A DNA stretch of 64,000 nt, from positions 1-64,000 of the forward strand of contig NZ_QFDQ01000054.1 of assembly GCF_003270085.1 (NCBI RefSeq), given 5' to 3'. A model generated the notes under the pieces. The model was given only the letters and a program-made list of their open reading frames with translations, did not search any database and was not told the origin of the DNA. Source of the stretch: Streptomyces triticisoli (GTDB lineage: Bacteria; Actinomycetota; Actinomycetes; Streptomycetales; Streptomycetaceae). The position numbers and the translations under genes are program-made. This document shows positions 16,433 to 34,729 of the stretch, in pieces; the stretch's first letter is position 1, and every line of letters starts with the position of its first letter.

Positions 16433-16652
16433 CTGGACCCCTTCATGTCGAAACAGCGTTCAGTCTCTGTGCCAAGGGCGACGGTCGCCAATCACCCGAA
16501 GGTGGGATTCTCTCTGTGCACATTGCACGACGGGATTCGCGCCGGCCATCCTGGCGAAGAAGGACGACCGATGTGGGCCGGCCGGAGATCCGGCGTCCGC
16601 ACGGACCGGCGAGCGACAGAGGGTTGGTTCCGAAGTGATCCCAGGTGCATGC

Positions 16653-17317: not shown

Positions 17318-19156
17318 TCAGGAGTCGAGAGCGTCCCGGAAGAATCCCAGGTCCGGTTTCTCGGGCGTGCCGATCAACAGTGCGCGATCCAGTAGGCCGT
17401 TGTTCTGCTCGCAACTCGTCTCCGGGAGCAGGACGCATGCGTGGCACGCGGCGAGGTTGATGCTTCCCGCGCCACCCGCTTCCGACTCGACGCACAAGGG
17501 GTCGGCGGAGCACCATTCGGCGCGACGCAGGGCGGAGCGCAGCGTTCTCGCCAACCGGTGCGGCTCGCCCTGCGCCACCAACCCGCCGAGGCTTCCGGCC
17601 GAGTCACTGGTCGCTGTGTAGATCAGCAGCCCGGCCATGGTGTCGTCGGTGTAGAGACGCTCGCGCAGGGATGCCGCGGGATAACCGGCTTCCAGACTCC
17701 ACTCGGTGATGAGTATGTGCGCCAAGGTGTGCAGCAGGACCATGCGCGGGGTGGCTGGAGACTCGGGCGCGGATTTGGGGTCGGACGCCCGTTCACGCAG
17801 GAGACGGTTGTGACGGATGCGGATGCGCTCCACACGCCCGGCGACGGCGACGTCGTCGGCCCACGTGTCCAGACGCTTTTCGTCGAGCCGGAGGAAGACT
17901 CCTTCCCCCAGGACCTCCATGGCGGGCAGCCAGTCCAGGTCGACCAACGAGAGGGGGGCTTCCTGCACGTCCGCGTTGGAGTCAGGGGTGTGCACCCGGG
18001 TGAACGACTTCAACGCCCGTACTTCACGTAGCCGCTTGACGAGCATGGGTGTGACCAATCCGAATTCGGCGAGCACGGGTGAGGAAGTGGACGGCGGTTC
18101 GCAGATGAACTGCTCGTCGCGTGTCTGGTCGCGCTCCGCGTTGCCCACCCGCAGACGCCGGTACTCCTGTCTGCGCAGCGCCACGTACCGGCTGTCGTGA
18201 CCGGTCTCCTCGCCGGCCTCCGACTCCTCGTGCTGCTCCGCCTCCAGAAGCTCGACCACCACCGCGATGGGGATCTCCTCCTTGTGGCGCAGCGAGAACC
18301 CCTTCAGAAAGAGCTCGAGGTCCGAGCGCTTGAGCTCCCTCAACTGCTCCCAGACATCAGCCAGTCGAGCCGCAAGGCCATCACTCCACGGAGGAATGGA
18401 CAGCGCCGACTTGACCAGCGGCTGCCAGGCCATGGACGAACCACGCTGCAGCGTGCGAGGCGGCTCCTTGCAGCTCTCGACAGGAGCGTCCTTGAGCCAC
18501 GGTCGTTTCCCCGTGCACCGGACACGCAGGTTCGACAGAGCGCTGCTGCGGAAGGCCCCTTCCATGGACACCTCCGGCACTTCACCGCAGGTGCACGAGA
18601 TCAGGATGCTCCGCAACGATGCGGTCCTGCCGCTAGTACGCAGGCGCAACTGTCCACCGCAGTGCCCGGACACCCCGTCCTGGCGATTGTTGCGGTGAAC
18701 CCATTTCCAGTAGGGGAAGTCGTCGATGTGACCGTGCGGACAGGCCATCACGAAACGAGACGGAACCAGGTCCTCCTGACAGTCGCCGCACTCGTTCTTC
18801 CGGGGCGGTGAGTTGAAGCGGTCCACATGCTGGAGGGAGTGACACGAGGGACAGAAGTGCCACAGCGGGAAGCGCCGGACGTGTACGCCGTCCTTGCTCG
18901 TGTCGTCCGAGGCGGGTGGGAGCCGGAACGACTTCACCCCGAGAGCGCGAGCGAGTCGGTGCTCGTGCAGTACGGGGGCCTCGGTGATGTTCCAGGAGTC
19001 GGTCCCGGCGACGATGAACGACTCGCTGTCCACCGCGACCATGGAGCCCACACCGTACGTGGTGATCATCTGGGAGCGCCGCACCGCACCCTTGCGGGGA
19101 AGGCTGCGCGCGGGAGCGCCTGCGCCACGCCGGCGATGCGGAGGGGGCGGGGTCAT
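17318..19156 (-). CDS. drmB: DrmB: DUF1998 protein of the DISARM core
   Basis: A 612-residue zinc-finger-rich protein. The N-terminus has RRSQMITTYGVGSMVAV. Cys pairs occur in FCPSCHS...CGDCQED, ACPHGHIDDFPY and SCTCGEV. The C-terminal DUF1998 hallmark is SINLAACHACVLLPETSCEQ followed by NNGLLDRALL. In DISARM, DrmB pairs with the helicase DrmA to recognise or block incoming phage DNA. It is the last gene of the operon. Its ATG overlaps the drmA stop (ATGA) with GGAGG upstream. No PLD-type drmC follows, unlike canonical DISARM. Confidence 0.88.
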   Translation of the reverse strand: MTPPPPHRRRGAGAPARSLPRKGAVRRSQMITTYGVGSMVAVDSESFIVAGTDSWNITEAPVLHEHRLARALGVKSFRLPPASDDTSKDGVHVRRFPLWHFCPSCHSLQHVDRFNSPPRKNECGDCQEDLVPSRFVMACPHGHIDDFPYWKWVHRNNRQDGVSGHCGGQLRLRTSGRTASLRSILISCTCGEVPEVSMEGAFRSSALSNLRVRCTGKRPWLKDAPVESCKEPPRTLQRGSSMAWQPLVKSALSIPPWSDGLAARLADVWEQLRELKRSDLELFLKGFSLRHKEEIPIAVVVELLEAEQHEESEAGEETGHDSRYVALRRQEYRRLRVGNAERDQTRDEQFICEPPSTSSPVLAEFGLVTPMLVKRLREVRALKSFTRVHTPDSNADVQEAPLSLVDLDWLPAMEVLGEGVFLRLDEKRLDTWADDVAVAGRVERIRIRHNRLLRERASDPKSAPESPATPRMVLLHTLAHILITEWSLEAGYPAASLRERLYTDDTMAGLLIYTATSDSAGSLGGLVAQGEPHRLARTLRSALRRAEWCSADPLCVESEAGGAGSINLAACHACVLLPETSCEQNNGLLDRALLIGTPEKPDLGFFRDALDS

Positions 19157-22100
19157 CGTGTTGCCTCCATGAACAGGGCGGATTCCGCGTCGACGTCGCG
19201 CAGACTCCACAGGGTCGGCCATGCCTCGTCGTTGGATTCGTCGTCATAGGCACACAGGAGCGAGGGAATTTTGCTGCCTCGGACCGGCTCGTAGTAGAGG
19301 CCTCCGCTTTCCTCCGCCGCGTCCGTCCACCAGTCGACGAACTCGTCGAAGGCATCAGCCGTCCTCTTGCGCTCCTCGGGGTCGATCGTGCCCACGCGGC
19401 TGAGTAGAAGCGGCCTGATCACCTCTGTGAGTTCGTCCTGGAACTGGCGAATGCGACCGGCAGCGTCATTGGCGCGAGCCTGCGGGATCAGGATGCGAGT
19501 CAGAGCGACGACGACGGCGTGCAGACCTCGGTCCCGGGCGCGGGCGGAGAAGGGCGTGACGGACGTCGACTCGACCTCGCGGTACAGGGCCGAGTGGAAG
19601 TGCAGGAAGTTCTCGTAGTGCGAGCGGTCCCTGGAGCGGGCGGAGTTGAGCATGACCGCCACCAGCCCGGGATGGCTGCGCCCCACCCGGCTGGTCGCCT
19701 GGATGTACTCGGCGGTCGTCTGTGGTTGGCCCATCACCGCCATGAGCCCCAGCCGGTCGACGTCCACACCGACGGAGATCATGTTGGTGGCGAGCAGTAC
19801 GTCGACCGTCTCCTCGTGTGGAAGCCTCAGCTCGATCTGCTTGAGGCGGCTCGGGATCTCGCTGGAGTTGGCGCGGCTGGTCAACTCGGTCTGCTCCCGG
19901 ATCTTGCGCCTCGGTGTCTCGTCGCGCTCGGCCAGGTATTCCAGATAGGACTCCACGTCGTCGTGGACCTGCAGTTCGGCCGCCGCCAGCAGGCGCAGGC
20001 TGTTGAAGTAGCCGACCAGGGTCCAATAGGCGTCACGGACACTCTCCGCCGTGTCGAGACGCTGCGCCTGGTGCAGCAGGGTCGCGTACGTGCGGATCAG
20101 CAGCGTCGACTGGCTGGTGCTCGGAGTGAGGAGGCCGATGTACTGGCGACTGGCCTTGCGCTCGCGCGGGGTCTCCACGGCGAACCACGAGTCGCGGGCA
20201 TCCAGCCCGGCCGGTGGGAACTGGCGCACCTCTCGGTCGAAGAGGGCTCGACCTTGTTGCTCGGCCCGGCGGATGGTGGCCGTGGAGGCAACGATCTTCG
20301 GCTGGTCGGCCAACGCATCCACCGCGGTCTCGTACAGGCCGGTGAGGGTGCCGAGTGGCCCCGAGATGAGGTGGAGCTCGTCCTGGACGATCAGCTCGGG
20401 CGGCTTGGTGCCGTCCGCGCGGTCTCGATTGAACAGCGCTGCGCTCTGCTCCCGCCAGGGCATGGAGGCGAACTTGTCGACCGTCGCGATGACCAGGGTG
20501 GGACGGGCGTCGTACACGGCGTCGTCGATCAGGTGGACCGGGAGACCATCGGTGAACTCGCACGTCTGGTCCGGGCAACGGACGTGCATGCGCTTGGCGT
20601 CGTGATCCACCTCGTACTGGTGGGCATCGAGCCGGGTTCCGCACCAGGGGCAGGCGTGGAGCTGGACCGGGTTCTTCTCCTGGAGCACCTTCTCCTTGCG
20701 GAGCTCCGCCAGGCTCTCCTCGGCGACCGTCAGTTTGTTGGGGGTCGCGGACTGCCCCACCCACATGCCGATGGAGATCGGCTCCCGGCCCAGCAGATCC
20801 TCGTCCTCCTGACGCATGAGCTCCATGGCACACATCAGGATCGCCGCGCGTTCGAACTGCTGAAGGGTGAGTAGCCGCAGGGTGTAGCGCATGAGCACGG
20901 TGACTCCCGCGCCCTGAGCGCCGTGGCGGATACGACGCAGGAACGTGGTGAAGGCGATGAGCCCGAGGTAGGCCTCGGTCTTGCCACCGCCGGTGGGGAA
21001 CCAGAGCAGGTCGGCCAACTGCCGATCCGGATGCTCGGGGTTCACGATGCCTTCCAGGCACAGCAGCATGAACGAGATCTGGAACGGTCGCCAGCGACCG
21101 GACACCGGGTCGGGCGCACCCTGCCTTCCGCTCTTCACCCACGCACTGCGGGCCCGCTGCTGCGACATGGCCTGGTTGGCGAGCCGGAAGGCCTTCATGG
21201 CATCCGGATTCTCGGCAAGGATGCGAATGCCGCGCCGCATACGTCCCAGGGCCGCTTCACAGGCGTCCAACTGTTTGCCGGCCACTTCCTCGAACGGTGT
21301 GCCTGCGAGGTCGGCGGCCTCCGCCCTCTTGCGCTCGATCCAGTCGGCGTATCCGCCGACCAGCGCGCCCAACGCGGACAGGACGTCCGAGCCCGGCTTC
21401 GTGGCGAGACCGTGCATGGTCAGCGCCTCGCTGTCGATGTCCGGGTTGGAGTCCGTGAGCAGGACCTCGTGCGCCGGCACGAACTCTGTCCGCACCTCAG
21501 CGACGACGGCCGGCTTGATCTTCGGGTCTCCCACGGGAGGCGGTGTCCAGTCCCAGTCCGCCGCGCAGCCGTGCCCCACGGCGAACGTCGGAGCGTGACG
21601 GTGGAGCAGTCGGCTCACGGCCTGGTCGGGGTCCACCGCGTCGCGTGCGGTGGGGCGTTCCACGAAAGCGGGCGCACCGGACGGGGTGGTCACGGTGAGA
21701 CGAGGCTGGAAGAGGCTGAACGCATCCTGCAGTTCGCGCTCGCTCACCCGCATGTTGTTGATGAGGGTCACGGTCACGGTGACCGTGCCGGAGGGGACCG
21801 ACGGCTTGCGGACGAGTGCCCGCACCAGCACCTCTCCCTGTTGCGGACCGTCGGGCTGCATGCCGGGCTGCGTCACATCGATGGAGACGACGGGCAGGGA
21901 CAGCTCGCGACGCCGCCAGTGCTCGGCCTGGTCGGAAGTCGTTCGTGCCTCCGCTCGCTTCGCGGACACGATACGTCCCTCGGCGTCGACCGGTTCGTAC
22001 ATCGCGGCCCGGACGTGCACCTCCACGACGGGGGACACCGACGGATCCACGGCGAAGGTCAGACCCATGGACGACGGGCGACGGTCATTGGCCAGGGAGA

Positions 22101-22377
22101 CGCCCAGTTCCGACCCGGCGTCCTCGGTGTCCCGCCGCGCCAGTACGGGCGTGTCGTCCAGGCCATCCACCTCGGCCGCCTCGTCGGCGATCTCCTGCTC
22201 GGCGACGGCGTCCGTGCCACGTGGGAACAGCACACCGATCGGGTACATGGTGATCGGTGGATCCTGCGTGAGGACCTCGTCGGGCGCCCCCGGCCCCAAC
22301 AGGTCCCTGCGGAGCTGGTCGACAAGGCTCTGACGAGCGGCGTAGTGCGCGGCGTGCGGGTTCTCGGCATTCGTCAT
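19153..22377 (-). CDS. drmA: DrmA: DISARM SF2 helicase
   Basis: 1074 residues. It has a large N-terminal region (about 1-400), Walker A LLWFPTGGGKTEAYLGLIAF, a DEAH variant QDELHLISGPLGTLTGLYE, a zinc-ribbon-like insert (CPWCG ... CPDQTCEF), and C-terminal motifs ISVGVDVDRLGLMAVMGQPQ and QATSRVGRSHPGLVAV. These match DrmA, the core DISARM helicase. The N-terminus contains DPPITMYPIGVLFPRG. The ATG at 22377 overlaps the stop of the UvrD-like gene (ATGA). It is probably expressed and assembled with DrmB. Confidence 0.9.
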   Translation of the reverse strand: MTNAENPHAAHYAARQSLVDQLRRDLLGPGAPDEVLTQDPPITMYPIGVLFPRGTDAVAEQEIADEAAEVDGLDDTPVLARRDTEDAGSELGVSLANDRRPSSMGLTFAVDPSVSPVVEVHVRAAMYEPVDAEGRIVSAKRAEARTTSDQAEHWRRRELSLPVVSIDVTQPGMQPDGPQQGEVLVRALVRKPSVPSGTVTVTVTLINNMRVSERELQDAFSLFQPRLTVTTPSGAPAFVERPTARDAVDPDQAVSRLLHRHAPTFAVGHGCAADWDWTPPPVGDPKIKPAVVAEVRTEFVPAHEVLLTDSNPDIDSEALTMHGLATKPGSDVLSALGALVGGYADWIERKRAEAADLAGTPFEEVAGKQLDACEAALGRMRRGIRILAENPDAMKAFRLANQAMSQQRARSAWVKSGRQGAPDPVSGRWRPFQISFMLLCLEGIVNPEHPDRQLADLLWFPTGGGKTEAYLGLIAFTTFLRRIRHGAQGAGVTVLMRYTLRLLTLQQFERAAILMCAMELMRQEDEDLLGREPISIGMWVGQSATPNKLTVAEESLAELRKEKVLQEKNPVQLHACPWCGTRLDAHQYEVDHDAKRMHVRCPDQTCEFTDGLPVHLIDDAVYDARPTLVIATVDKFASMPWREQSAALFNRDRADGTKPPELIVQDELHLISGPLGTLTGLYETAVDALADQPKIVASTATIRRAEQQGRALFDREVRQFPPAGLDARDSWFAVETPRERKASRQYIGLLTPSTSQSTLLIRTYATLLHQAQRLDTAESVRDAYWTLVGYFNSLRLLAAAELQVHDDVESYLEYLAERDETPRRKIREQTELTSRANSSEIPSRLKQIELRLPHEETVDVLLATNMISVGVDVDRLGLMAVMGQPQTTAEYIQATSRVGRSHPGLVAVMLNSARSRDRSHYENFLHFHSALYREVESTSVTPFSARARDRGLHAVVVALTRILIPQARANDAAGRIRQFQDELTEVIRPLLLSRVGTIDPEERKRTADAFDEFVDWWTDAAEESGGLYYEPVRGSKIPSLLCAYDDESNDEAWPTLWSLRDVDAESALFMEATR

Positions 22378-24284
22378 CGGCTGTTGTTCCCCTGGACCTT
22401 TCCACTCGACTTGTAGCGCCCCAGCCCCGACAACCGGGGCACGAGCCACACACCGTGGTCACCGAGGCCCGCCCGGGCGCCGGACGCAGGGCTTCCCGCG
22501 ACGGTCTCCATGGTGTCGACCCGGAACCCGTGAACTTCGTCGGGCCATCGAATCTCCCACGTCCGGCTCACCTTGAGGGAGGCGTGCAGGTCGCGTCGGA
22601 AGCGCTCCGACACGACGGCGACCTGCCGGTCCTCGTGCACGACCGCGTACGGAGGACTCTGGTCGACGGCCATGGGCAGATCGTGCAGCCGACGCAGCAC
22701 GAGGGAGTCGCCGGTACGGACATGCGTCGCCAGGTAGTCCTGCAACTCGACGGGGTCATCATGGAAGCCGTCGGTGCCCGGCGGGTGCTCGCCGCACACG
22801 TCACGCCCGGCTGCCTCGATCCCACGGCGCTCGTACGACTTCCAGCCGCCCACATACCAGCGGTTGAGAGCGCGGTGGAAGCGCAACTGCGCGGTGTCCG
22901 GGGCGTCGATGCGGTACAGGTCGTAGCGAGGGCGGGTCATGGCGACGTACAACGCGCGGGCCTCGGCGGCCGGGTCGACGTGGGTGTGGTGCTTGCGCAG
23001 TTCCCCCATGGTCGGCGGCTCGACCACCACTACCCGGTCGAACTCCAGGCCCTTGGCCCGGTGCACGGTGGAGACGACGAGGGACGCGGGCTCGGCAAGG
23101 GACAGGTCGTCGGGAAACCATCCCTCCGCCACCGATCGACGGATCCTGCCCAGGTCCAACTGCCCACGTCCCCCGCGTGCCACGGCGCGCAGCGAACGCC
23201 ACATACGGTCGACATCCGCACCGGCCGGCACGCTCGACTGCACGACGAGCTCATGGAAACGCTCTTCCCCGAGCGTCGCGGAGCCGGTACGGCGAAGCAC
23301 CCCCGCCACCCATGCGGGAACCGGCCGATCCTGCGCGGACCTCTGCAACCGGTGGGGAACCCCGTGCTTGTGCAGCACCTCAGCGATCACCAGTGCCTGC
23401 CGGTTGTCCCGGCACAGGACGGCGCAGGAGTCGGGGAAGTCCCGGAGGGAGTCGAGGGTGAACTCCGACGTGAGCACGCCGAAGGAGGGAAGACCCTGGA
23501 GGCGGGAGCGCAGCTCGCCGTGGACGCGCTCACCCTCGGCAGCGGCCTGATCCGTCTCCGAGGGCAGTCCCTGCAGGGTTTCTCCCAGTGACAGGGCGGT
23601 GCTCGCCTCAGCGGATTCGGCTCGGAAGTTCCGCGAAAGGTGCAATTCGATCAGGTCGTCCGGGTAGGACGCACGCAGCCAATCGAAGAAGTAGTTGGTC
23701 TCGGCGGCGCGTGCGTCGGGGTCGGAGACCTGGAACCCGTAGATCGCCTGGGCCGGATCACCGACCACGGTGAAGCCGCAGGAGTCCTGGAAGCGATCCA
23801 GCAGGGCCTCGACCATGTTGCGTCGGTCGCCGACGAGGTCCTGGACCTCGTCGATCACCACATGGGCCGGTGCTCCCTGCTCCCCAGCCTCGACGGCACC
23901 TTTGGTGATGGCGTCCTCGGCCTGCCGAATGCGTTCCTCGAAGCTGTACCGGCTCCAGTCCTCCTCCGGGTAAGCACTGGTCAGCAGGGCGTATGCCCAG
24001 GAGTCGAAGGTCTGCGCCCGGACTCGCCGAGCTTGCTCGGCGTGCCGGGAGATCCGGTCCTTCAGCTCGCGCACGGCGGCACGGGAGAAGCTCAGGACGA
24101 GAATCTCCCGTGCTTCCAGCGCGTCCTCATCCCGACTCATCAGGGCGTCGAGACGGCGGACCAGGGTGTGGGTCTTACCGGACCCCGCACCTGCAGTCAC
24201 CAGGACGCGAGCGTCCCAGGGCTGGTCGACGACGGTCTGCTGCTCGGCGGTGAGCGGAGGACTGTCGGCGTAGGGGTCGATCAC
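22374..24284 (-). CDS. UvrD/PcrA-like SF1 helicase of the defence operon
   Basis: 636 residues. The SF1A helicase motifs are intact: Walker A VTAGAGSGKTHTLVRRL, DEVQD in VVIDEVQDL, GDPAQAIYGF (motif III), STVHRAKGLEFDRVVVVE (motif V) and ALYVAMTRPRYDL (motif VI). The C-terminal about 130 residues are of unknown type. It starts at GTG 24282-24284, overlapping the upstream stop (GTGA), so it is coupled to the giant helicase and to drmA. UvrD-like helicases accompany nucleases in several defence systems. No nuclease domain is visible in this protein. Confidence 0.88.
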   Translation of the reverse strand: MIDPYADSPPLTAEQQTVVDQPWDARVLVTAGAGSGKTHTLVRRLDALMSRDEDALEAREILVLSFSRAAVRELKDRISRHAEQARRVRAQTFDSWAYALLTSAYPEEDWSRYSFEERIRQAEDAITKGAVEAGEQGAPAHVVIDEVQDLVGDRRNMVEALLDRFQDSCGFTVVGDPAQAIYGFQVSDPDARAAETNYFFDWLRASYPDDLIELHLSRNFRAESAEASTALSLGETLQGLPSETDQAAAEGERVHGELRSRLQGLPSFGVLTSEFTLDSLRDFPDSCAVLCRDNRQALVIAEVLHKHGVPHRLQRSAQDRPVPAWVAGVLRRTGSATLGEERFHELVVQSSVPAGADVDRMWRSLRAVARGGRGQLDLGRIRRSVAEGWFPDDLSLAEPASLVVSTVHRAKGLEFDRVVVVEPPTMGELRKHHTHVDPAAEARALYVAMTRPRYDLYRIDAPDTAQLRFHRALNRWYVGGWKSYERRGIEAAGRDVCGEHPPGTDGFHDDPVELQDYLATHVRTGDSLVLRRLHDLPMAVDQSPPYAVVHEDRQVAVVSERFRRDLHASLKVSRTWEIRWPDEVHGFRVDTMETVAGSPASGARAGLGDHGVWLVPRLSGLGRYKSSGKVQGNNSR

Positions 24285-27200
24285 TTGGCGCTCCACAGGT
24301 GTTCGAACTGGGTGAAGGCCAGGGCCTTTCCGTAGTTGGTGATGTTGTCGCGGACGTTGAGGATCAGGCACATGGGCTTCCCGCCGTTGCGCGGTCCGCG
24401 CAGGCCGCGGCCGATCATCTGCTGGTAGACGTTCGGGCTGTAGGTCGGCCGAGCCACTACGACGGCGCGGGTGGCGGGGGCGTCGAAGCCCTGGTGGAGA
24501 ACGCCGTAGTTGGTCAGGACGCGTAGCCTGCCCTGACGGAAGGCGCTGATGCGGTTGGTGCGGTCCGAGGGACTGGTGGCCGAGTCCACAGCTGCGCTAC
24601 TGATGCCGCGGTCGTTGAGCTTGGCCGCGAGGAACTTGGCATGGCCCACTGAGGTGGCGAAGACCAGCACCGGCCAGTCCTCGGGCATTGCGGTGATCTC
24701 GTCGATGATGCGCTGGTTGCGGTTGTGGTCGTCGGCGAGACGCTGCTCGGCCGCCTTGGAGAGAACGCTCATCTGGTCGGCGCGAGCCTTTTCGTCCTGA
24801 GTCAACTCGATGGTTCCACCGATTAGCTCCTGATGCTCAACCCGAGCGAGCATGCCCAGTTCCTGGAGTTCGGCGTATGGGTCGCCGTGGAAGACACCAT
24901 CATCCAGACGCCTACCGCCGAAGCGTTGGACCAGGCGGCGGGTCTGCTCCTCGTTGGTGTTGCGGAAAGGCGTCGCCGTGAGGCCCAGCAGGTGCCGATC
25001 GGTACGGGAATGCGGAAGGCCCAACTGCGTGAGCAACTCGGTGTACTGCGGGGAGATCGCCACGTGCGCCTCGTCGACGATGACAAGAGCAGCCTTTCGG
25101 AGCCAGGCGTAACTGTCGGTCGCCAAGCAGTTCCGCAGTTTGGCGTCAGTGGCGACGACGAGCTGGGGGCGCCCCACAATCGGGCCGGCCTCGTTGGAGG
25201 ACCAGAGACGACTGATCGTCAGCTGCTTCTCCGCACCCACCTTCTCCCAGACGAACTTCCAGCTCTGCACCGCCTGTTCACAGAGTTCTTCGGTCTGGGC
25301 GATCCACAGGATCGGGCCACCGAGGTCGTCGTCCTGCTTGATCCACCGAATCACGGCCTCGGCGGTCACGCGGGTCTTGCCGGCACCGGTCGGCAGGGAG
25401 AGCATGCCCCGCTGCGGCGTGACACGGTCCAGCATCTGGAAGATGTTGGCGGCCAGGCGCTCCTGGTAGTCGTGCAGTCGAGGGAATTCTCGCGGCCCGT
25501 CCACATCGACGCGGGGCTGGAGCTTCGGTGTGCTGAAGCCGGCGAAGACATCGGGAAACCTCAGGTCGGATACGAACTTGACCGCTGCGGCCGACCCGGT
25601 GAACGAGGACGGAGCATGGCTCGGGAACCGCGCTTGGAGCTCCTTGACGTAGGCGTGGAGCACGCCGTCGCCATGCGAGTTGTAGGCCATCTGCGCGACA
25701 CGCTCGGCAGAAGGCTCGCCTCCGAGTTCATGCCGCTCGCTCTCCAGCAACCCCTCGGGCAGGCGCTCCCGCAGAGCGTCCGTGCCGAGCAGTAGGGCGA
25801 GCTTCTTGACGACGGTGTCGGCGTCGCGGACCGCCTGCAGAGCCTGCTGGGTCCTCTTGTCCTGCTCCTGCCGGTGCTGCGCCTCCAGAATCGCTCGGCA
25901 GCCGGAGTCACCCAGCCGCCACCGCAGCTCCCGATCGGCCGCGGTCAGCGCTTCCAGACGAGACTTCGGGTTGAGAACCAGCACCGTGGTGCCCGACAGC
26001 GCACTCTTCAGCGGCTTCGGCCTCATGCCGTTGGGCGTCTTGGTGATCTCCTCGAGCTCGGAGCAGTACTGGAGCTCGAAGTTCTTGATCGTGTTGCCCA
26101 GCCGCTGCCGAAGCGTCGGGTAGGCGTCGGTGAGCATCATCGGCTCGCCGGACGGGACGTACCGGACCTCCTTGCTGATCACATGGGCGAAGGGCAACAT
26201 TCCCCATTTGTCTATCAGCAGCTCGGCGTCCTCGGGGCCCGCGGTGAGCAGGGCAGGTACAGCCTCCGCGCGGAGCGTCCGGTACTCCTCGACGGAAGCG
26301 GCCACGGCGATTTCGCCGTCCTCCCGGTTCCCCCATGTCTCACCGATGCGGCACCGAGTCTTCCCTTCCGGGAAATGCAGATCGAGGCGAGTCATCAACA
26401 CGTATGTGTTGCCTACGAATGCATCGTCCTCGCTGGCGAGCAGTTGCTCTGTCAGCTTGGCCCACAGGGCTTCGGGAACCTTCTCCACGCTTATGGGAAG
26501 ACCGAGCTTGCGGGCCTTCTCCTCGCTGATGTCCGCGACGGGCAGGACATCGGCGTAACCGGCGAGCTGAGGGCCCACCGCATCGGATGGGCGACGCGGC
26601 CCCTGGGAAGTCGGCACCATGCCGTACTTGCGCACCACCCAACGAAGGGGAGAGGGAACCGCGGCTCGCGTGTTCGCGGAGGCGCCGATCTGCCGGGTCC
26701 ACCGTTCGACGACCAAGTGGTCCGGCAGGGCCTGGACGAACGCGGCCCGCCCTTCGTCGGACAGCAGGAAGAGGAGATGGAGTGAGTCTGCGAAGGCTGA
26801 GCCTTCCGTCGTCATGCGGTTGATCGTGGGGCGGCTCTTGCTGCCGAGGGTGCGGCAGTAGTCCTCGTAAAGGGCCTTGCGGTACTCCTCGTACCAGTTT
26901 TCCTCAGCGGCCTGGGTCGCTTGCCAGGGCCGTGTGCGCAGGCCCAGTTCACGAAACACGGCGGTGTCGTCGGAGTGAAAAGAGAGGTCGACGGCAACAG
27001 AGCGGTCCCGAGAGCCGTCCTCGGGGACGATCGGCCCCGGCAGGAGGCAGTTCCGCATCGGGTGGAACGCGCCGTCGAGCGTGAGGACGTGGAGGGCCTC
27101 CAGTGGCTTGGGGAAACGAGAACGGATCTCACCCACGACACTGGAACCACCGGCACGGCGGAACAGCTCCCAGAACCGCCGCCAGTCGCGGGCGGTGTAA

Positions 27201-29044
27201 TTGGCGAATCCCTGGTCGAGGACACCGACGAACCGACCGCGGCTGTCCGCCTCACGGATGCCGATTGTACTCAGGGCGACTTGAAGGGACGGGTCCTCCG
27301 AGAGCTTCGGATGCACGTAGACGAGGTCGTCCTTGAGGCCGTCCTGCACACTGCGTCGCCAAACCTGCCCGGCGATCGGCGCGACCAGATCTCCGGCCTC
27401 CGTCAGAACGGTCCGAGCCCGCCGGGCCTCCTCCGCGAAGGGGTGCCGCTCAGTGATCATCTCGGCCAGGATGCGGACGGCTATCGCCGAGCCCTCCGGG
27501 CCGGCATCACCGACGAGTGCCTCCAGCCACTCGACGACGGTGGCCCGCCGGTGACCGGCCGCGTCGAGGATGTGCTCGACCTTGCCCGAGCGGATCTCCG
27601 CGGCCTCGACGGACGGGTGCAACCAGTCGGCCGGCCGGCCGGGGCACTTGCTCCACATACGGAGCCACTCCGGCTTCAGGACCCTGCCGGACCGACGGCC
27701 CCCGTCCGGATGGATGCGCAGGTCGCGCGGTGTCCGCAGGCGACCGTCCTGGTCGGGCAGGGAGGGGAGGATCGCCGTGAGCCTCCAGATGCTCCTGGTG
27801 AGGAGTTCGTCCGCCCAGCTGAGGGTTTCCGCTGCCTTGGCTCGACCAGGGAGGAAGGCCAGGTACGCGCCGGGGTCTTCAGCAGGAGCGAGTTGCGGGA
27901 GCGACGTCACGACCAGCTTGGCGGCAACCTGGAGCAGCTCCTGGTTGAACGGACTGGAGTCCAGGAGGTTCTGTCGATCCTCGTTGGTCTTCCAGGCACC
28001 GTTGAGGGCGCCGCTCAACGTCATCTCGTACTTGGTGGGGAAGAAGGACCAGAACTTGCCACGTCCCCTGGCGGGGTTGGCGTAAGGGAGAGTACCGCCG
28101 TACTCGGGGACCGCCCACGAGATGTCGATGGTGGCCCGGTCGTGGAGCTCACCCGCTGTGCCGCGCGCCGCTGTGGTCGGCTGGTGGGCTGCCGTGAAGA
28201 CCTTCCAGCTCACGCTTGATGCGGTCCGGCCGGTACCTTTCTCGTGAATGGTCCGGCGCACCCCGTCCTGGTCGACCGTGATCACGCGTCGGACGACGGG
28301 CATGCGTCGCCGGTCCTCCAGGACGACCTGACCCACGTGGGACGAGAAAAGCTGGAAGAGCTTCGGAAACTCCTCCTGGCCGTTCTTCGACTCGGGGTTA
28401 TGGATGTCGTTGGCCAGTCGGTTGGCGGCGCCGGGGAGCAGTGGCAGTCGGACAACGGTGGTTGCCCAGGAACGCAGATCGTCCAGAACGGCGTCGGCCT
28501 TTCGCTCCGCAGCCTCGTCGAGGGACCGGGCCATGCGTAGTACCGGCGCCTCGAAGTCGGAATCCGGTGAGAAGCCGGCGGTGCGTGCGATCTCGGTGCG
28601 GGACCACGCGCGGTCGAAGCCGAAACTCCCGGTGTCGCTGAAGAACTGGGGGGCGTCCGTCACCACCAGGTAGGACTTGACACCGACACCGAAGCGACCG
28701 ATCTGCCCGCCACGCTTGCGGGAGACGCCCATCCGGAGAATCGTCTCGGTTCCCTCGGGGGTTACGGGCGTGCCCTGGTTGGCACAGTACAGATAGGTGT
28801 CGGTGAGGATGACGTGCACCGCGCCACCAGGCTCGTTGGCGATTTCGTCGGCCGCGTTCTGCACGATCTCGAAGAGCTGGCGGTCACCGTATCCGCCCTG
28901 AGTGATGCGACGTTCGCCGTTGGCGTGCTCTTGGATGAGGCCCGGGTCGACCCGGTACGTCTCCAGAACGCGGGACGACTGCTCGAGGATTTTGGCGATC
29001 ACGGGCGAGGTGGCCGAGGAGTCCCCCGACGACGGCTGTGACAC
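24281..29044 (-). CDS. GHKL (sacsin-like) ATPase fused to an SF2 DEAH helicase, 1587 aa
   Basis: The N-terminal GHKL/HATPase domain (about 25-330) has RQLFEIVQNAADEIANEPGG (N-box E..QNA.D) and GGQIGRFGVGVKSYLVV (G2 box), similar to sacsin-type ATPases in prokaryotic conflict genes. A long middle region (about 330-1190) has no recognised domain. The C-terminal SF2 helicase (about 1200-1587) has LSLPTGAGKTRVTAEAVIRW, IVDEAHVAIS, GLTATPFR and YQQMIGRGLRGPRNGGKPMC. The start is GTG 29042-29044, with no strong ribosome-binding site. A later internal GTG is possible. It leads the coupled operon to uvrD-like, drmA and drmB. GHKL ATPases fused or linked to helicases are known in methylation-coupled restriction systems. 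A DISARM linkage is unusual. Confidence 0.85.
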   Translation of the reverse strand: MSQPSSGDSSATSPVIAKILEQSSRVLETYRVDPGLIQEHANGERRITQGGYGDRQLFEIVQNAADEIANEPGGAVHVILTDTYLYCANQGTPVTPEGTETILRMGVSRKRGGQIGRFGVGVKSYLVVTDAPQFFSDTGSFGFDRAWSRTEIARTAGFSPDSDFEAPVLRMARSLDEAAERKADAVLDDLRSWATTVVRLPLLPGAANRLANDIHNPESKNGQEEFPKLFQLFSSHVGQVVLEDRRRMPVVRRVITVDQDGVRRTIHEKGTGRTASSVSWKVFTAAHQPTTAARGTAGELHDRATIDISWAVPEYGGTLPYANPARGRGKFWSFFPTKYEMTLSGALNGAWKTNEDRQNLLDSSPFNQELLQVAAKLVVTSLPQLAPAEDPGAYLAFLPGRAKAAETLSWADELLTRSIWRLTAILPSLPDQDGRLRTPRDLRIHPDGGRRSGRVLKPEWLRMWSKCPGRPADWLHPSVEAAEIRSGKVEHILDAAGHRRATVVEWLEALVGDAGPEGSAIAVRILAEMITERHPFAEEARRARTVLTEAGDLVAPIAGQVWRRSVQDGLKDDLVYVHPKLSEDPSLQVALSTIGIREADSRGRFVGVLDQGFANYTARDWRRFWELFRRAGGSSVVGEIRSRFPKPLEALHVLTLDGAFHPMRNCLLPGPIVPEDGSRDRSVAVDLSFHSDDTAVFRELGLRTRPWQATQAAEENWYEEYRKALYEDYCRTLGSKSRPTINRMTTEGSAFADSLHLLFLLSDEGRAAFVQALPDHLVVERWTRQIGASANTRAAVPSPLRWVVRKYGMVPTSQGPRRPSDAVGPQLAGYADVLPVADISEEKARKLGLPISVEKVPEALWAKLTEQLLASEDDAFVGNTYVLMTRLDLHFPEGKTRCRIGETWGNREDGEIAVAASVEEYRTLRAEAVPALLTAGPEDAELLIDKWGMLPFAHVISKEVRYVPSGEPMMLTDAYPTLRQRLGNTIKNFELQYCSELEEITKTPNGMRPKPLKSALSGTTVLVLNPKSRLEALTAADRELRWRLGDSGCRAILEAQHRQEQDKRTQQALQAVRDADTVVKKLALLLGTDALRERLPEGLLESERHELGGEPSAERVAQMAYNSHGDGVLHAYVKELQARFPSHAPSSFTGSAAAVKFVSDLRFPDVFAGFSTPKLQPRVDVDGPREFPRLHDYQERLAANIFQMLDRVTPQRGMLSLPTGAGKTRVTAEAVIRWIKQDDDLGGPILWIAQTEELCEQAVQSWKFVWEKVGAEKQLTISRLWSSNEAGPIVGRPQLVVATDAKLRNCLATDSYAWLRKAALVIVDEAHVAISPQYTELLTQLGLPHSRTDRHLLGLTATPFRNTNEEQTRRLVQRFGGRRLDDGVFHGDPYAELQELGMLARVEHQELIGGTIELTQDEKARADQMSVLSKAAEQRLADDHNRNQRIIDEITAMPEDWPVLVFATSVGHAKFLAAKLNDRGISSAAVDSATSPSDRTNRISAFRQGRLRVLTNYGVLHQGFDAPATRAVVVARPTYSPNVYQQMIGRGLRGPRNGGKPMCLILNVRDNITNYGKALAFTQFEHLWSAK

Positions 29045-29184
29045 GAGGATTTCCGGTTTCTGTGCGTGGTTCGATGTGGGCGGAGAGCGAAGGGCCGGCC
29101 ACCTGGGTGATGCGTGGCCGAGCCCCTCGTCGAGGGCGAGCGAGTGTGTGGACGGCGAGTCCGAGAGCGAGCTGCCTGGTTGCT

Positions 29185-29565
29185 TCAGGAGAAGTTGATG
29201 ATGATGACCAGGGCGATGCGCTTACGGGATCGGGAAACCCGCAGGGAAGTCTTCGGACGGGTCGTCTCGTAGGTGCGGGAAGGCGGAGCCACGTTTCGGC
29301 GAGAAGCCCGGATGCGACGCGTGGACCTGCGAATGTGAACCGTGGCGGTGGGGGACTTCTTGGTGATCTGCCGGTCGGTGAACGCGATGATCCTCCGGTA
29401 ATTCGAGATGACCGGATGCGAGAGGCCGTGCGCCATGAAGAACTCGGACCGCTGCTCGGGACCCTCGAGGGACTCGTACTGCGCGACCAGGCGTCGCATG
29501 CGCTCGATGTCGGGATCGCGGGAAATACTCGAGTCGTCCGAAGAGCCATTGGTGGAATTCGACAT
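29185..29565 (-). CDS. Small basic protein at the head of the DISARM-like operon
   Basis: 126 residues, not recognised. The N-terminal half is acidic and Ser-rich, followed by DIERMRRLVAQYESLEGPEQ and RSEFFMAHGLSHPVISNYRR, which could form a small helical DNA-binding unit. The C-terminal half is very basic (many Arg/Lys) and ends in a short hydrophobic tail LVIIINFS. AGGGGG lies 6 bases before the ATG at 29563-29565, a good sign of translation. It lies 140 bases upstream of the giant GHKL-helicase gene on the same strand, so it is probably co-transcribed and may be a regulator or DNA-binding component. Confidence 0.6.
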   Translation of the reverse strand: MSNSTNGSSDDSSISRDPDIERMRRLVAQYESLEGPEQRSEFFMAHGLSHPVISNYRRIIAFTDRQITKKSPTATVHIRRSTRRIRASRRNVAPPSRTYETTRPKTSLRVSRSRKRIALVIIINFS

Positions 29566-30358: not shown

Positions 30359-30405
30359 GCTGGTCCTCGGTCCCGGACGTGCACCGTCCGGGACCGAGGA
30401 CCAGC
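30359..30405. repeat. Perfect 21-bp palindromic hairpin
   Basis: GCTGGTCCTCGGTCCCGGAC plus G (30359-30379) is the exact reverse complement of 30385-30405, with loop TGCAC. It lies just upstream (minus sense) of the IS630 remnant and 279 bases before the plus-strand defence operon. It could be an insulating terminator, an IS end or an attachment-type structure. Confidence 0.75.
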
Positions 30406-30683
30406 AGCACGGCCAACTCTTCCCGCCGCTGTGGCTTCATCCGGCTTGGCTGACCGCTGGGCCTCTCAGAAGTGAAAGGAAGAAGTTCCGGTTGATGTCC
30501 CCGCAAGGGTATTGCTGCGGTTCCGGTCAATCCGGGCATTCGTGTCCATAATTTCCACGAGCAAGAGATCGAGTGTTCCGGCCGCAGTGTGGTGTCAAAG
30601 GAAATTGTCACGAACGGCTTCTGTCAAACAGTCGTGTATGCTCGTCGCCGCATGAGCACTCCGACCAGGGGGGACGGGAAGCG

Positions 30684-32804
30684 GTGAATGGCGGAGAGGA
30701 CTTCGGTCCCTGGCTGGCGCGCCAGTTGCAACGCGCGAACATGAAGCAGGCCGACTTGGCGGATCGCGTCGGGCTCACCCGCGCGGCTGTCTCCGCCTGG
30801 ATAACCGGGCGTGCGGTCCCGCGGGACGAGACGATGCGTGCCATCGCCGACGTCTTCGGCGCGGAGTACGCGACCATGCACACCCGCACGACCGATGTCG
30901 CGGACAGCGCTCGCCCTGTGAGCTGGTACCACCGTCCCGCCTACCTCGACGGCGGCCGGGACTTCGGCAACGCCGCGACGTTCGCCTTCGATGCCGATGT
31001 GGAGGTCCTGGCCCGCGAGGCCACGCAGAACAGCCTCGACGAGCGGCTCGACCGCAACAACCCCGTGCGAGTTCGTTACACGATCCACGAGTTGACCGGA
31101 GAGGCCCTCGCCCGATTCCGCGAGGCCATCCGGTGGGACGACCTCTTCCCGCACTACGAGGCGGCGGCGGCCCAGGAGCAGAAGGTCGGCCGTGTCATCG
31201 CCGAGGGACTGCGGGACATGTACGAGCGTGATCGCCTCGTGCTGCTGCGAGTCGACGACTACAACGCCTCGGGCCTCACCGGCGACGACTACGAGGACGG
31301 ACGTTTCGCCGCTGTCGTCCGGCGTCAGCTCGACAGCCGGAAGTCCGATACGAGCGCCGGCGGTTCGTACGGCCTGGGCAAGGCCACTCTCTGGGCGACC
31401 AGCCGACTCGGCATGGTGCTCATCAACTCCACCCTCTCCGAACCGCACGAGGGTCGGACCGAACGACGTCTCGTCGGGCGGCTGGACCTTCCGTGGCGGG
31501 TTGTGGAAGGCGAGCCGTTCGCCGGGCCGGCGTGGTTCGGTGAGCCCGACACCGCACCTGGCAGCGAGGGCGTCTCCAGATCGTGGTGGGCCGACGAGGA
31601 CACGGTGGAGCGACTCCACCTCGCGCGCGAAAGCTCCGCGCCGGGCACTTCCTTCCTGATCGTCGGAGCGCATGACGTGGCGAGCAAGGCTGCCGACCCG
31701 GCTGTACAAGGCACCGATGAGGTCGACGACGAGGAGACGGTGCAGGCGATGCACGAGCGTCTCGTCGACGCCCTGGGGCACAACTTCTGGGCCGCCATGA
31801 CCGCCGGCCGCAGCACGACTCCCATCCTCGAAGCCTCCGTACGGACTCTGCGCAACGGGCACGTGCTGATCGACGAGGAGCGCGTCGACCCCTACCGCGT
31901 GCAACCGTCCCGTACTCGGGCACTCAAGGCGTACCTCGACGGAGAGACCGTCGACCGTCTGACGGAAACCGGGCAAGTGGCGCATGCACGGGTGCCGTTG
32001 ATGGTCCCCGCTCAGCGCGGGCAGCGAGGCACGGTCGAACACGAGGCCGTGCTTCTGGTCACCGCGGCCGAGGACGGGGACGGCAAGCCCAACCAGGTGG
32101 TCATGATGCGCGGCAATCGCATGGTGATCCGCGAAGCTCGGGTGCCGGACCTGCCGCTCGGCACCAATCCGTTCCAGGCCGTTCTTCTGGCCGGTCACGC
32201 CGCGGGTGAGCACGCTCCCCACGCGGAACGGGCGGAGGCGTTCCTCCGGGCATCGGAGCCTCCGGAGCACGACAAGTGGGGACAGACTGACGAACTGCGT
32301 GCGGTCTACTCGACCGGAGCCCACCGCCGGATTCGGGAGTTCACGAGTGCGGCGTACCGGTCCGTTCGTGAACTCGTCGGTCGTTCCCAGGTGAAGAGCA
32401 AGGCTGGCCCACGAGCGTTGCGGGACCTGCTCCGGCTCGACGGCGGACCGAGCCCGGTCGTACGTGGTGGGGGAGCGCCGACGATCAGGGGCCTGGACGC
32501 CGAACTCGACGGATCGGGTGCCTGGCACGTGAGGGCAGAGGTACGACTGCCCGCCGGCCAGGACCCCTGGCTCCTCAGCCCGGTGGCGAAGTTCGATGTC
32601 CGTTCCGGGGCGCGTCCCTCCGTGGGCTGGTCGGAGGTCGTCGCAGGACAGAACTGCGAACTCGTCGGCGACAAGCTGCTCTTCAAGGCAGGTGCCCGCA
32701 GCGCGTCGTTCAGCGCGGTCACCGATGTGTCCACCCACCCTGTCCGAGCCGAGCTCGCAGGGCTGATCGTCGAGTTGCAGAAGGCCAGGGGAGCCTCCGA
32801 GTGA
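30684..32804 (+). CDS. HTH-GHKL ATPase (MutL/MORC-like superfamily) of a restriction-linked operon
   Basis: 706 residues. The N-terminal XRE-type HTH (about 5-65) is FGPWLARQLQRANMKQADLA with RVGLTRAAVSAWITG. The GHKL ATPase core (about 95-420) has an N-box EVLAREATQNSLDERLD, G1 LRVDDYNASGL and G2 SAGGSYGLGKATLWATS. A C-terminal region follows with no named domain. The start is GTG 30684, with AGGGGGGACGGGAA upstream. The stop overlaps the next gene's GTG (GTGA). GHKL ATPases next to Dcm and Vsr genes are described as paraMORC/MutL-type restriction-modification partners. The HTH suggests it also binds its own promoter or a methylation site (inference). Confidence 0.8.
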   Translation: MNGGEDFGPWLARQLQRANMKQADLADRVGLTRAAVSAWITGRAVPRDETMRAIADVFGAEYATMHTRTTDVADSARPVSWYHRPAYLDGGRDFGNAATFAFDADVEVLAREATQNSLDERLDRNNPVRVRYTIHELTGEALARFREAIRWDDLFPHYEAAAAQEQKVGRVIAEGLRDMYERDRLVLLRVDDYNASGLTGDDYEDGRFAAVVRRQLDSRKSDTSAGGSYGLGKATLWATSRLGMVLINSTLSEPHEGRTERRLVGRLDLPWRVVEGEPFAGPAWFGEPDTAPGSEGVSRSWWADEDTVERLHLARESSAPGTSFLIVGAHDVASKAADPAVQGTDEVDDEETVQAMHERLVDALGHNFWAAMTAGRSTTPILEASVRTLRNGHVLIDEERVDPYRVQPSRTRALKAYLDGETVDRLTETGQVAHARVPLMVPAQRGQRGTVEHEAVLLVTAAEDGDGKPNQVVMMRGNRMVIREARVPDLPLGTNPFQAVLLAGHAAGEHAPHAERAEAFLRASEPPEHDKWGQTDELRAVYSTGAHRRIREFTSAAYRSVRELVGRSQVKSKAGPRALRDLLRLDGGPSPVVRGGGAPTIRGLDAELDGSGAWHVRAEVRLPAGQDPWLLSPVAKFDVRSGARPSVGWSEVVAGQNCELVGDKLLFKAGARSASFSAVTDVSTHPVRAELAGLIVELQKARGASE

Positions 32805-33790
32805 AGGTCTATCCGTACAAGAGGATCACAGGGGAGATCGGTCTCGAGGTCACGAGTGTTCGGCAGGAGCGCGAGGGCTTCTACCAACACGATCTGGAGA
32901 CCTGGGCGTTCTCCACGCAGGAGCGGGTCGTCGCGCTGCACCAGGTGGAACGCGACGACTGGGAGAGCGTGCGCCTCGGCGTGACCGCGATCCTGCCGGG
33001 CAAAGAGATTGCCGAAGGCCCCTGGACGGACATCTCGGTGATTGCCGTACTCACCGAGAAAGCGACCAACTCCCGTACTACCGCTCGACTCGAGCGGGTG
33101 GCGGGGAAGGACGGCTCGTGGACCGGCCACCTGCGGTTCTGGAGGTCGGCCTACCGCAGTCGGGCCGACCTGTCCGTGGTTGCCGTCGCCACCGTCGACG
33201 GAGTGCGGGGCAGGATGATCGGCAGGGCGGAGGAGCCCTGGATCGTGGATCTGACCGCCCGCACACCCGTACGGCAGCGGGAAATGATCATCAATCAGGT
33301 GGACTTCACCTCCGGCCCCGAGTGGCTGCGCCCCTTCCGGGACGCGCCGTGGCTCGTGGAGACCTCGGGTGATCTCCCGACCGTGCACCTCAACGCCGGG
33401 TTCGAGGGTGTGTCCGAGCTTCTCGACTCGTCCGGAGGGCCTTTGGAGCGAGCAGTGCGAGACATGCTCGCCGCCCAGATTGCGACCGACGTGTGGACGG
33501 CCGTCTTCCACTCCGCGGTGAGCGACCTGGAGGTGGACGAGCACGGAAACCCGCAGTGGCCGGGTGGGTGGCGGGATGCGGTACTGCGCGGAATGCTCGC
33601 CGACGTCCTGCCGGACCACTCGGAAGCCGACGCTCTGCGTGAGATCGACGCCCGGCGCAGGGAAGGCTCCGGATGGAACGAACTGCAGCCGCGCATCAAC
33701 TACGCGGCCGGGAGGCGGGCAAAGGTGGCCAAGAACCTGGGTACGGCGATCCGGACCCTCGACACGTCGCAGAGGGAGAGCCGAGCATGA
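32801..33790 (+). CDS. Unknown protein, middle gene of the GHKL operon
   Basis: 329 residues, family not recognised. It begins at GTG with KVYPYKRITGEIGLEVTSVR, has a beta-rich N-terminal half (for example TTARLERVAGKDGSWTGHLR) and an alpha-helical C-terminal part (about 215-329) with NPQWPGGWRDAVLRGMLADV. No HKD, PD-(D/E)xK or Walker motif is seen. It is coupled on both sides by 4-base overlaps (GTGA and ATGA), so it is almost certainly made in fixed ratio with its neighbours and may form a complex with the GHKL ATPase. Confidence 0.75.
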   Translation: MKVYPYKRITGEIGLEVTSVRQEREGFYQHDLETWAFSTQERVVALHQVERDDWESVRLGVTAILPGKEIAEGPWTDISVIAVLTEKATNSRTTARLERVAGKDGSWTGHLRFWRSAYRSRADLSVVAVATVDGVRGRMIGRAEEPWIVDLTARTPVRQREMIINQVDFTSGPEWLRPFRDAPWLVETSGDLPTVHLNAGFEGVSELLDSSGGPLERAVRDMLAAQIATDVWTAVFHSAVSDLEVDEHGNPQWPGGWRDAVLRGMLADVLPDHSEADALREIDARRREGSGWNELQPRINYAAGRRAKVAKNLGTAIRTLDTSQRESRA

Positions 33791-34700: not shown

Positions 34701-34729
34701 ACGGGTCTCCGCCGCGATCAGAGACCCGT
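34701..34729. terminator. Bidirectional hairpin between convergent defence genes
   Basis: ACGGGTCTC (34701-34709) pairs with GAGACCCGT (34721-34729). The stem spans the stop codon of the minus-strand methyltransferase gene and follows the plus-strand stop by 14 bases. Confidence 0.6.

What the first reader, a model, noticed from the sequence alone, without database searches (positions are those of the whole stretch)
17318..29565. Non-canonical DISARM: DrmAB core with a GHKL-helicase giant and a UvrD helicase
drmA and drmB are present and intact, but the drmC (PLD), drmD and drmE partners of known class 1 and 2 DISARM are not found here. Upstream genes in the same run are a UvrD-like helicase and a 1587-residue GHKL-ATPase/SF2-helicase fusion, linked by 4-base overlaps at three consecutive junctions, plus a small basic protein. 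Such tight coupling argues for one multi-helicase machine and possibly a new DISARM subtype.
Basis: partly seen in the sequence, partly recalled or inferred. Interest (0 to 1): 0.82.

Follow-up and report, generated by a model that had tools for sequence, protein, structure and literature searches.

The report
DISARM helicases coupled to MORC-methylation module
A Streptomyces-type genome carries a ten-gene, probably anti-virus locus in which a DISARM-like set of DNA helicases sits back-to-back with a DNA-methylation and ATPase module that in relatives carries different helicase sets, suggesting a plug-in defence design.

Summary
GHKL-SF2 helicase, UvrD, DrmA and DrmB form an operon with exact 4-base overlaps. 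All three partners follow the GHKL gene in 63 of 65 named loci, and the overlaps are conserved (64/64, 62/64, 60/65 rows). DrmA and DrmB pass NCBI's curated cut-offs. No DrmC, D or E hit was seen in the proteins scanned, and no PLDc_2 match (E 1e-5) in the genome.

X329 is in 47 of 293 genomes of the order. All 47 carry a helicase set: quartet type 31, NERD-helicase/DrmAB/UvrD 6, Z1 alone 10. The paraMORC tree needs 7 changes of set, while each DrmA type is one group. One MTase lost its catalytic Cys (PRV/PRL in 61 of 62 rows, one gap).

My reading: a DISARM-like effector plugged into a MORC-type restriction-modification platform, a new variant joining two known kinds. Linkage is shown; anti-phage function and mechanism are inferred.

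The parts
17318..19156 (-). DrmB (DUF1998/MZB; DISARM partner of DrmA)
   Evidence: NCBIfam DrmB_fam 490 bits vs cut-off 240; 7s9v_B E 1.4e-84; 4-base overlap start at 19156
19153..22377 (-). DrmA (YprA-family SF2 helicase)
   Evidence: NCBIfam DISARM_DrmAS 1037 bits vs cut-off 950; 7s9v_A E 6.9e-184; Serratia V1296 aligns with a Val inside a C-terminal stretch conserved in at least 97% of 63 rows
22374..24284 (-). UvrD-like SF1 helicase, no nuclease domain recognised
   Evidence: PF00580 2.9e-26, PF13361 1.1e-14; helicase motifs conserved over 61 rows
24281..29044 (-). Giant sacsin-type GHKL ATPase fused to RadD-like SF2 helicase
   Evidence: NCBIfam P_loop_sacsin 60.6 vs 50; RadD model matched below its cut-off (104.6 vs 720); ATP-site and helicase motifs conserved over 66 rows; PADLOC TmtA profiles match residues 18-582
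29188..29565 (-).
   Evidence: convincing homologue only in L032 of 65 loci
30573..32804 (+). HTH-GHKL ATPase (paraMORC-like; PADLOC PDC-M33A); true start probably further downstream
   Evidence: HTH_3 2.4e-10, no Pfam GHKL hit; PDC-M33A 2.7e-23; GHKL-like motifs conserved over 53 rows; found in 63 of 65 loci
32801..33790 (+). Orphan protein X329: beta-sandwich plus helical end, guessed adaptor
   Evidence: no Pfam, PADLOC or NCBIfam hit; AlphaFold2 pLDDT 87.4, pTM 0.53; 63 of 65 loci; 4-base overlap with the gene before it here, but in only 30 of 64 rows
33787..34686 (+). DUF6339 protein (PADLOC PDC-M33C), mostly helical, function unknown
   Evidence: PF19866 9.6e-13; PDC-M33C 3.7e-08; model pLDDT 84.6, pTM 0.82; 63 of 65 loci
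34718..35845 (-). C5 DNA methyltransferase MTb, catalytic PPCQ present
   Evidence: PF00145 100.9 bits vs 22, but NCBIfam dcm 83.4, below its cut-off 100.65; motif; 64 of 65 loci
35967..36938 (-). C5-methyltransferase-like MTa without the catalytic cysteine (PRV in place of PC)
   Evidence: NCBIfam dcm 111.8 vs 100.65; alignment to M.HaeIII shows the loss; PRV 59, PRL 2, gap 1 of 62 rows; 62 of 65 loci
36961..37410 (-). Vsr endonuclease
   Evidence: NCBIfam vsr 113.8 vs 97.85; 53 of 65 loci

Best explanation
The locus is one DISARM-like defence unit built from two halves. The modification/sensor half is MTb, the catalytically dead MTa, Vsr, and the HTH-GHKL/X329/DUF6339 operon. MTb marks host cytosines, MTa probably serves as its DNA-reading or stimulating partner, and Vsr handles the T:G mismatches that 5-methylcytosine produces. 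The paraMORC-like ATPase with its two partners acts as an ATP-gated clamp that reads the mark and regulates the system. The helicase half acts on DNA that fails the test: DrmAB loads on single-stranded tails, UvrD and the GHKL-SF2 helicase extend the unwinding, and phage replication is blocked. Shown: the genes, their intact motifs, the operon structure, co-occurrence and exchange of the helicase half. Inferred: anti-phage activity, the mark, the order of action, and that the halves talk physically.
For: Quartet genes together in 63 of 65 loci, with conserved overlaps. The other half is in the same loci: MTb 64, paraMORC, X329 and DUF6339 63 each, MTa 62, Vsr 53 of 65 (some hits are fragments or lie elsewhere in the locus). 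In 200 genomes of the family: quartet 18, paraMORC 24, both 16, all 16 head-to-head; Fisher p 6e-16, not corrected for shared ancestry. All 47 X329-positive genomes of 293 carry a helicase set. Pairwise distances of paraMORC track GHKL (r 0.96) and DrmA (r 0.91) over 55 loci, without a species-tree control. The Val proposed to sense the DNA base in Serratia DrmA is kept (role from PMC9142583, passages).
Against: The quartet can live without the paraMORC half: G048 and G020 have no paraMORC at 1e-20 and no MTase hit in the 20 kb read, and G050's second copy has MTases and Vsr but no paraMORC nearby. Two further genomes (G176, G042) have a distant GHKL-SF2 (30-33%) beside DrmAB and no paraMORC; counting them makes it 16 of 20. 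In L070 and L085 neither the window's UvrD nor paraMORC is found near the GHKL gene. MTa and MTb distances correlate less well with the quartet (r 0.60-0.75 over 55 loci; 0.52-0.78 without seven outliers). No shared operator: the motif enriched before paraMORC is in 2 of 80 GHKL upstream regions. No strong nuclease candidate besides Vsr, which is not detected in 12 of 65 loci. No phage data.
Confidence: 0.6

Rival explanations
1. Two independent defence systems, a paraMORC restriction-modification system and a DrmAB-helicase system, sit side by side because defence genes cluster. They share an address, not a mechanism.
For: Each half occurs without the other's usual partner: quartet without paraMORC (L105, L106, L107) and paraMORC with Z1 only (10 of 47). 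Separate promoters are expected from the divergent layout. MTase distances correlate only moderately with the quartet.
Against: The same head-to-head layout in 16 of 16 genomes with both. Two different DrmAB sets, quartet and NERD type, take the same position beside paraMORC. None of 47 paraMORC-module genomes lacks a helicase set. High distance correlation of paraMORC with GHKL.
Confidence: 0.22
2. A DNA-maintenance system: MTase, Vsr, MutL-like GHKL and UvrD together resemble very-short-patch or mismatch repair, with DrmAB as extra repair helicases.
For: Vsr and C5-MTases are adjacent in the window; GHKL ATPases of this kind were compared with MutL, and UvrD partners MutL (PMC2292703, parts 1-3 of 4 read).
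Against: Patchy presence, 47 of 293 genomes of one order and 2 of 396 in the phylum sample. Curated DISARM matches for DrmA and DrmB. Exchange of whole helicase sets fits an arms race better than repair.
Confidence: 0.1
3. A canonical DISARM that lost drmC and its class-specific gene, with unrelated neighbours.
For: DrmA and DrmB are genuine. DrmC is dispensable and often missing (PMC9142583, passages).
Against: The same quartet order recurs in 63 of 65 loci; the quartet's DrmA is one group (100/99) apart from the other DrmA rows of the family that were put in the tree.
Confidence: 0.05

Closest known systems
DISARM (DrmA/DrmB core)
   Same: DrmA and DrmB at curated strength, adjacent and overlapping; C5-MTases in the locus; the base-contacting Val kept
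   Different: No DrmC, D or E hit; two extra helicases (GHKL-SF2, UvrD) in 63 of 65 loci; linked to a paraMORC/X329/DUF6339 operon, Vsr and a dead MTase
MORC/paraMORC restriction-modification systems (Iyer, Abhiman and Aravind 2008, PMC2292703)
   Same: GHKL ATPase with C5-MTases, Vsr and SF2 helicases in one neighbourhood
   Different: The parts read (1-3 of 4) name Rad25-like, SWI2/SNF2 and a third SF2 helicase type, not DrmAB or YprA helicases; the paraMORC subfamily was not assigned here
Z1 + PD-(D/E)XK + C5-MTase candidate system, types I and II, and mzaABCDE (PMC9523054, section 11 read)
   Same: The Z1-only relatives (10 of 47) have Z1, MTase(s), DUF6339, X329 and paraMORC, often with Vsr; the NERD-type paraMORC carries an MzaA-like sigma domain (L097)
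   Different: In the window no Z1 is found and the DrmAB quartet takes its place; no PD-(D/E)XK protein other than Vsr recognised; equivalence to that paper's genes was not tested by sequence
ARMADA type II (PMC12458937: abstract, sections 5, 7, 8 and passages read)
   Same: A YprA-family helicase with a UvrD/GajB-like helicase
   Different: No BrxHII-like helicase (only a 14.8-bit BrxHI/HII match of the GHKL protein) and no PglX-like MTase seen; DrmA and DrmB are split as in DISARM; the GajB-like gene there is a RelE fusion
Tiamat (TmtA; system name recalled)
   Same: PADLOC TmtA profiles match the N-terminal GHKL part (best 9.4e-38)
   Different: Here the GHKL part is fused to an SF2 helicase and embedded in an operon with three partners

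Membership tests
DISARM | DrmA helicase | tested here: met
   1037 bits vs cut-off 950; 7s9v_A
DISARM | DrmB (DUF1998) encoded separately, next to drmA | tested here: met
   490 bits vs cut-off 240; ATGA overlap
DISARM | DrmC PLD nuclease | tested here: not met
   No DrmC hit in the proteins scanned; no PF13091 match at 1e-5 in the genome (other PLD families not searched). DrmC is reported dispensable and often missing (PMC9142583)
DISARM | DrmMI or DrmMII methyltransferase in the operon | tested here: inconclusive
   C5-MTases lie in the locus, not in the drmAB operon; PADLOC DrmMII is only a secondary hit (MTb 71 bits vs 300 for MTase_II)
DISARM class 1 or 2 | DrmD (class 1) or DrmE (class 2), as recalled | tested here: not met
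   No hit in the proteins scanned (three tables cut at 25 rows)
MORC/paraMORC restriction-modification | GHKL ATPase module with conserved ATP-site motifs | tested here: met
   QNSLD, DD.NA.GL and GGSYGLGK conserved over 53 rows (motif meaning recalled); no Pfam GHKL hit, PDC-M33A hit
MORC/paraMORC restriction-modification | S5 domain and subfamily motif | not tested
   no profile at hand; the paraMORC was not folded
MORC/paraMORC restriction-modification | SF2 helicase, C5-MTase and Vsr in the neighbourhood | tested here: met
mzaABCDE / Z1 systems | Z1-domain protein | tested here: not met
   no Z1 hit in the window; 13 of 65 relatives have one, two of them fragments
[quoted passage not shown]
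   only a 14.8-bit BrxHI/HII match of the GHKL protein; no PglX-like hit in the tables shown

The most novel reading that the evidence does not exclude
A plug-in immune platform: a conserved epigenetic sensor (paraMORC-like ATPase, X329, DUF6339, active plus dead C5-MTase) that hands non-self DNA to interchangeable helicase effectors. DISARM's DrmAB is one such cartridge and Z1 another, so DISARM-like and MORC/Mza-like systems would be different fillings of one architecture, with the dead MTase as a bacterial DNMT3L-like methylation reader.
Probability: 0.4. Interest if true: 0.82.

Novelty: new variant of a known kind. Interest (0 to 1): 0.66.

Why it matters
How DISARM tells self from non-self, and what works with DrmAB when DrmC is missing, is open. 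Here nature has replaced one helicase set by another several times behind the same sensor half. That is a natural swap experiment: hold the sensor genes constant, exchange the cassette, and ask which half sets specificity. It also links two literatures, DISARM/YprA helicases and MORC-type restriction systems, and offers a conserved methyltransferase pseudoenzyme to test.

Tried and rejected
X329 and DUF6339 as the missing nuclease: X329 folds as a beta-sandwich with a helical end, with only low-TM matches; DUF6339 is mostly helical with no PDB match at E 0.001. No nuclease claim is made.

DrmC supplied from elsewhere in the genome: no PLDc_2 match at 1e-5. Other PLD families were not searched.

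The small basic ORF as a conserved part: rejected. My first test used a wrong frame and was replaced.

A shared operator for both operons: rejected. AATTTGAC (either orientation) is enriched before paraMORC (51 of 98 regions, shuffled maximum 11; related genomes, so not independent) but found in 2 of 80 GHKL upstream regions. A 21-nt perfect hairpin at 30359-30405 is not generally conserved. No sigma-70 promoter or terminator match there.

Z1 hidden in the window: none. Canonical DISARM neighbours: none in the proteins scanned.

My simple ORF caller sometimes picks antisense frames, so the main counts rest on tblastn. The motif tally by regular expression contains false hits (L120, L121) and a miss (L128); the quartet count comes from the alignment, the others from the printed snippets.
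Full report
What is there. The minus-strand operon at 29044-17318 encodes a 1587-residue protein (sacsin-type GHKL ATPase at the N-terminus, RadD-like SF2 helicase at the C-terminus), a UvrD-like helicase, DrmA and DrmB. The three junctions are GTGA, ATGA and ATGA overlaps. DrmA scores 1037 bits against NCBIfam's DISARM_DrmAS (cut-off 950) and DrmB 490 against DrmB_fam (cut-off 240). Both align along most of their length with the Serratia DrmAB structure 7s9v. The methylation-sensing Val proposed for Serratia (V1296; PMC9142583, passages seen) aligns with a Val in the window's DrmA, inside a C-terminal stretch conserved in at least 97% of 63 rows. ATP-site and helicase motifs are conserved in the three ATPases (reading of motifs recalled).

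Is it more than chance? A scan of 84,980 species genomes with the GHKL protein gave 65 loci, mostly Streptomyces, with Kitasatospora, Rhodococcus, Rhodococcoides, Prescottella and Amycolatopsis. UvrD, DrmA and DrmB follow in 63 of 65; L079's copies are partial. The exceptions are L070, where a different ORF follows and the DNA held ends 2.5 kb on, and L085, which has DrmA/DrmB hits about 7.6 kb upstream and no hit to the window's UvrD. The 4-base overlaps recur in 64 of 64, 62 of 64 and 60 of 65 rows tested, window included. The GHKL proteins are 51-67% identical to the window's, except L032 at 88%, so this is long conservation. The query is one protein, so the set leans to near relatives.

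The missed half. Head-to-head with the quartet lies a plus-strand operon: HTH-GHKL protein (30573-32804), X329 (32801-33790) and DUF6339 protein (33787-34686). Beyond it, on the minus strand, are MTb, MTa and Vsr (37410-34718). By tblastn the six are present in 63, 63, 63, 64, 62 and 53 of 65 loci. A few hits are fragments (MTa in L065), and in a few loci MTa or Vsr lies beyond drmB or is inverted (for example MTa in L036, L037, L038, L095). The 4-base overlap between paraMORC and X329 is found in 30 of 64 rows only. The HTH-GHKL protein matches PADLOC's candidate PDC-M33A and the DUF6339 protein PDC-M33C. I call the former paraMORC-like because of its GHKL motifs and company; its S5 domain and subfamily were not tested.

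Unselected samples. In 200 genomes of the same family, the quartet's GHKL (45% identity or more over its length, counting one split and one broken copy) is in 18, the paraMORC in 24 and both in 16. In all 16 the two are divergent and 0.4-1.5 kb apart by the listed coordinates. Fisher's test gives p 6e-16, without correction for common descent. The two quartet-only genomes are G048 and G020. G050 has a second, paraMORC-less quartet. Two more genomes (G176, G042) have a distant GHKL-SF2 at 30-33% beside DrmAB, without paraMORC; they are outside the 18.

Helicase sets are exchanged. X329, a marker of the second half, is in 47 of 293 genomes of the order and 2 of 396 of a phylum-wide sample. I read the neighbourhoods of 41 of the 47 (37 fetched and four; classed), took the window directly, and classed G107, G133, G160, G168 and G186 from coordinates of GHKL, paraMORC and DrmA. 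Result: quartet type 31 (drmB lies outside the stretches), a second type 6, Z1 without DrmAB in the stretch read 10, none without a helicase set. In the second type the paraMORC has an N-terminal sigma-70-like, MzaA-like part, and across the promoter lie a NERD-nuclease helicase, DrmA, DrmB and a short UvrD-like protein (domains tested on L097; homologues). A tree of 60 paraMORC rows needs 7 changes of helicase type, and well-supported branches force 7. Six rows are flagged as long (L155, L154, L073, L136, L104, L102) and the join of L154 with L155 may be false; the tree was not rebuilt without them, so 7 may be somewhat too high. In a tree of 36 DrmA rows the quartet type is one side of a branch (100/99) and the NERD type another (100/100) (midpoint root). 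So whole cassettes have moved behind a stable sensor half. In the 65 named loci, 13 also have Z1 hits, two of them fragments.

One unit or two? For one unit: the constant layout, the absence of sensor halves without a helicase set, and distance correlations of paraMORC with GHKL, UvrD, DrmA and DrmB of 0.91-0.96 over 55 loci (0.83-0.92 without seven outliers). No species-tree control was made, so shared descent explains part of these. Against: quartets without paraMORC, weaker MTase correlations (0.60-0.75; 0.52-0.78 without the outliers), and no shared operator. I put one unit at about 0.6-0.7.

A dead methyltransferase. MTa keeps the C5-MTase frame (dcm superfamily 111.8 bits, cut-off 100.65), but where M.HaeIII has Pro-Cys, MTa has Pro-Arg-Val. 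Of 62 rows, 59 have PRV, 2 PRL and 1 a gap. In the printed snippets, 9 of 11 Z1-type and 5 of 9 NERD-type loci also show PRV. MTb, which scores below the dcm cut-off (83.4) though well above Pfam's, keeps PPCQ in 51 of the 56 rows displayed, the other five being truncated there (6 of 62 rows not displayed). A conserved non-catalytic partner, in the manner of DNMT3L (recalled), or a methylation reader are the readings I favour. Neither is tested. The one search on this theme listed no such bacterial case, which is weak evidence.

How it may work. Shown: parts, motifs, coupling, co-occurrence, swapping. Inferred: MTb marks self. The sensor half reads the mark with an ATP-driven clamp, in line with what was proposed for MORC-type ATPases (PMC2292703, parts 1-3 read). 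DrmAB loads on single-stranded tails (PMC9142583, passages). UvrD and the GHKL helicase extend unwinding. The nuclease step is unclear: no PLDc_2 match exists in this genome at 1e-5, Vsr is the only nuclease recognised in the locus, and 12 of 65 loci had no Vsr hit. Blocking replication by unwinding alone is therefore possible. In the distant relative L108 the gene between GHKL and DrmA has NERD plus helicase domains, which suggests that a nuclease partner is optional.

Against the literature. I searched PMC full text (listings). Papers opened: PMC12458937 (abstract, sections 5, 7, 8, passages), PMC9142583 (passages), PMC2292703 (parts 1-3 of 4), PMC9523054 (section 11, passages) and PMC8011034 (passages). 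None of what I read describes DrmAB with a GHKL-SF2 helicase and UvrD, nor DrmAB paired with a paraMORC/MTase module. Supplementary tables and the original DISARM paper were not read, so priority cannot be settled. The kinds are known; the combination and its swapping look new. Hence: new variant of a known kind.

Noticed in passing
window 30593-30628: Two TGTCAAA copies 29 bp apart lie before the HTH-GHKL gene; in relatives the 8-mer AATTTGAC, in either orientation, is in 51 of 98 distinct upstream regions (shuffled maximum 11). Possible autoregulatory site.
   Followed up: partly
window 30359-30405: Perfect 21-nt inverted repeat with a 5-nt loop in the divergent intergenic region; a different 18-nt one is in L044, the other loci have 14 nt or less.
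   Followed up: partly
window 38305-42894 (-): 1529-residue protein with repeated FtsK/SpoIIIE domains, a weak caspase-like N-terminus (4.9e-08) and AAA domains; PADLOC mad8 and SspH matches. Not part of the conserved unit.
   Followed up: no
window 12655-14103 (-): ORF with weak Cas12f matches (6e-4), probably a TnpB-like transposon protein (TnpB recalled).
   Followed up: no
window 15584-17291: HTH-DUF5753 gene and an opposite ORF at 16266-17291 just past drmB; their clusters are in 35 and 28 of 66 loci. Perhaps an insertion neighbourhood.
   Followed up: no
L110, L111: Two other DrmAB operons of the family have an MzaA-like protein directly before drmA, hinting at more sensor types joined to DrmAB.
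   Followed up: no
L107 (G020), GHKL gene: The GHKL-SF2 protein is split into two ORFs whose matches meet at about residue 748; a natural domain border or a frameshift.
   Followed up: no
L085, about 5.4-14.8 kb: A Rhodococcus GHKL-SF2 homologue sits with a GmrSD-type (DUF262) protein and a cluster-25 protein whose L063 member is a UvrD-like helicase, instead of the quartet.
   Followed up: no
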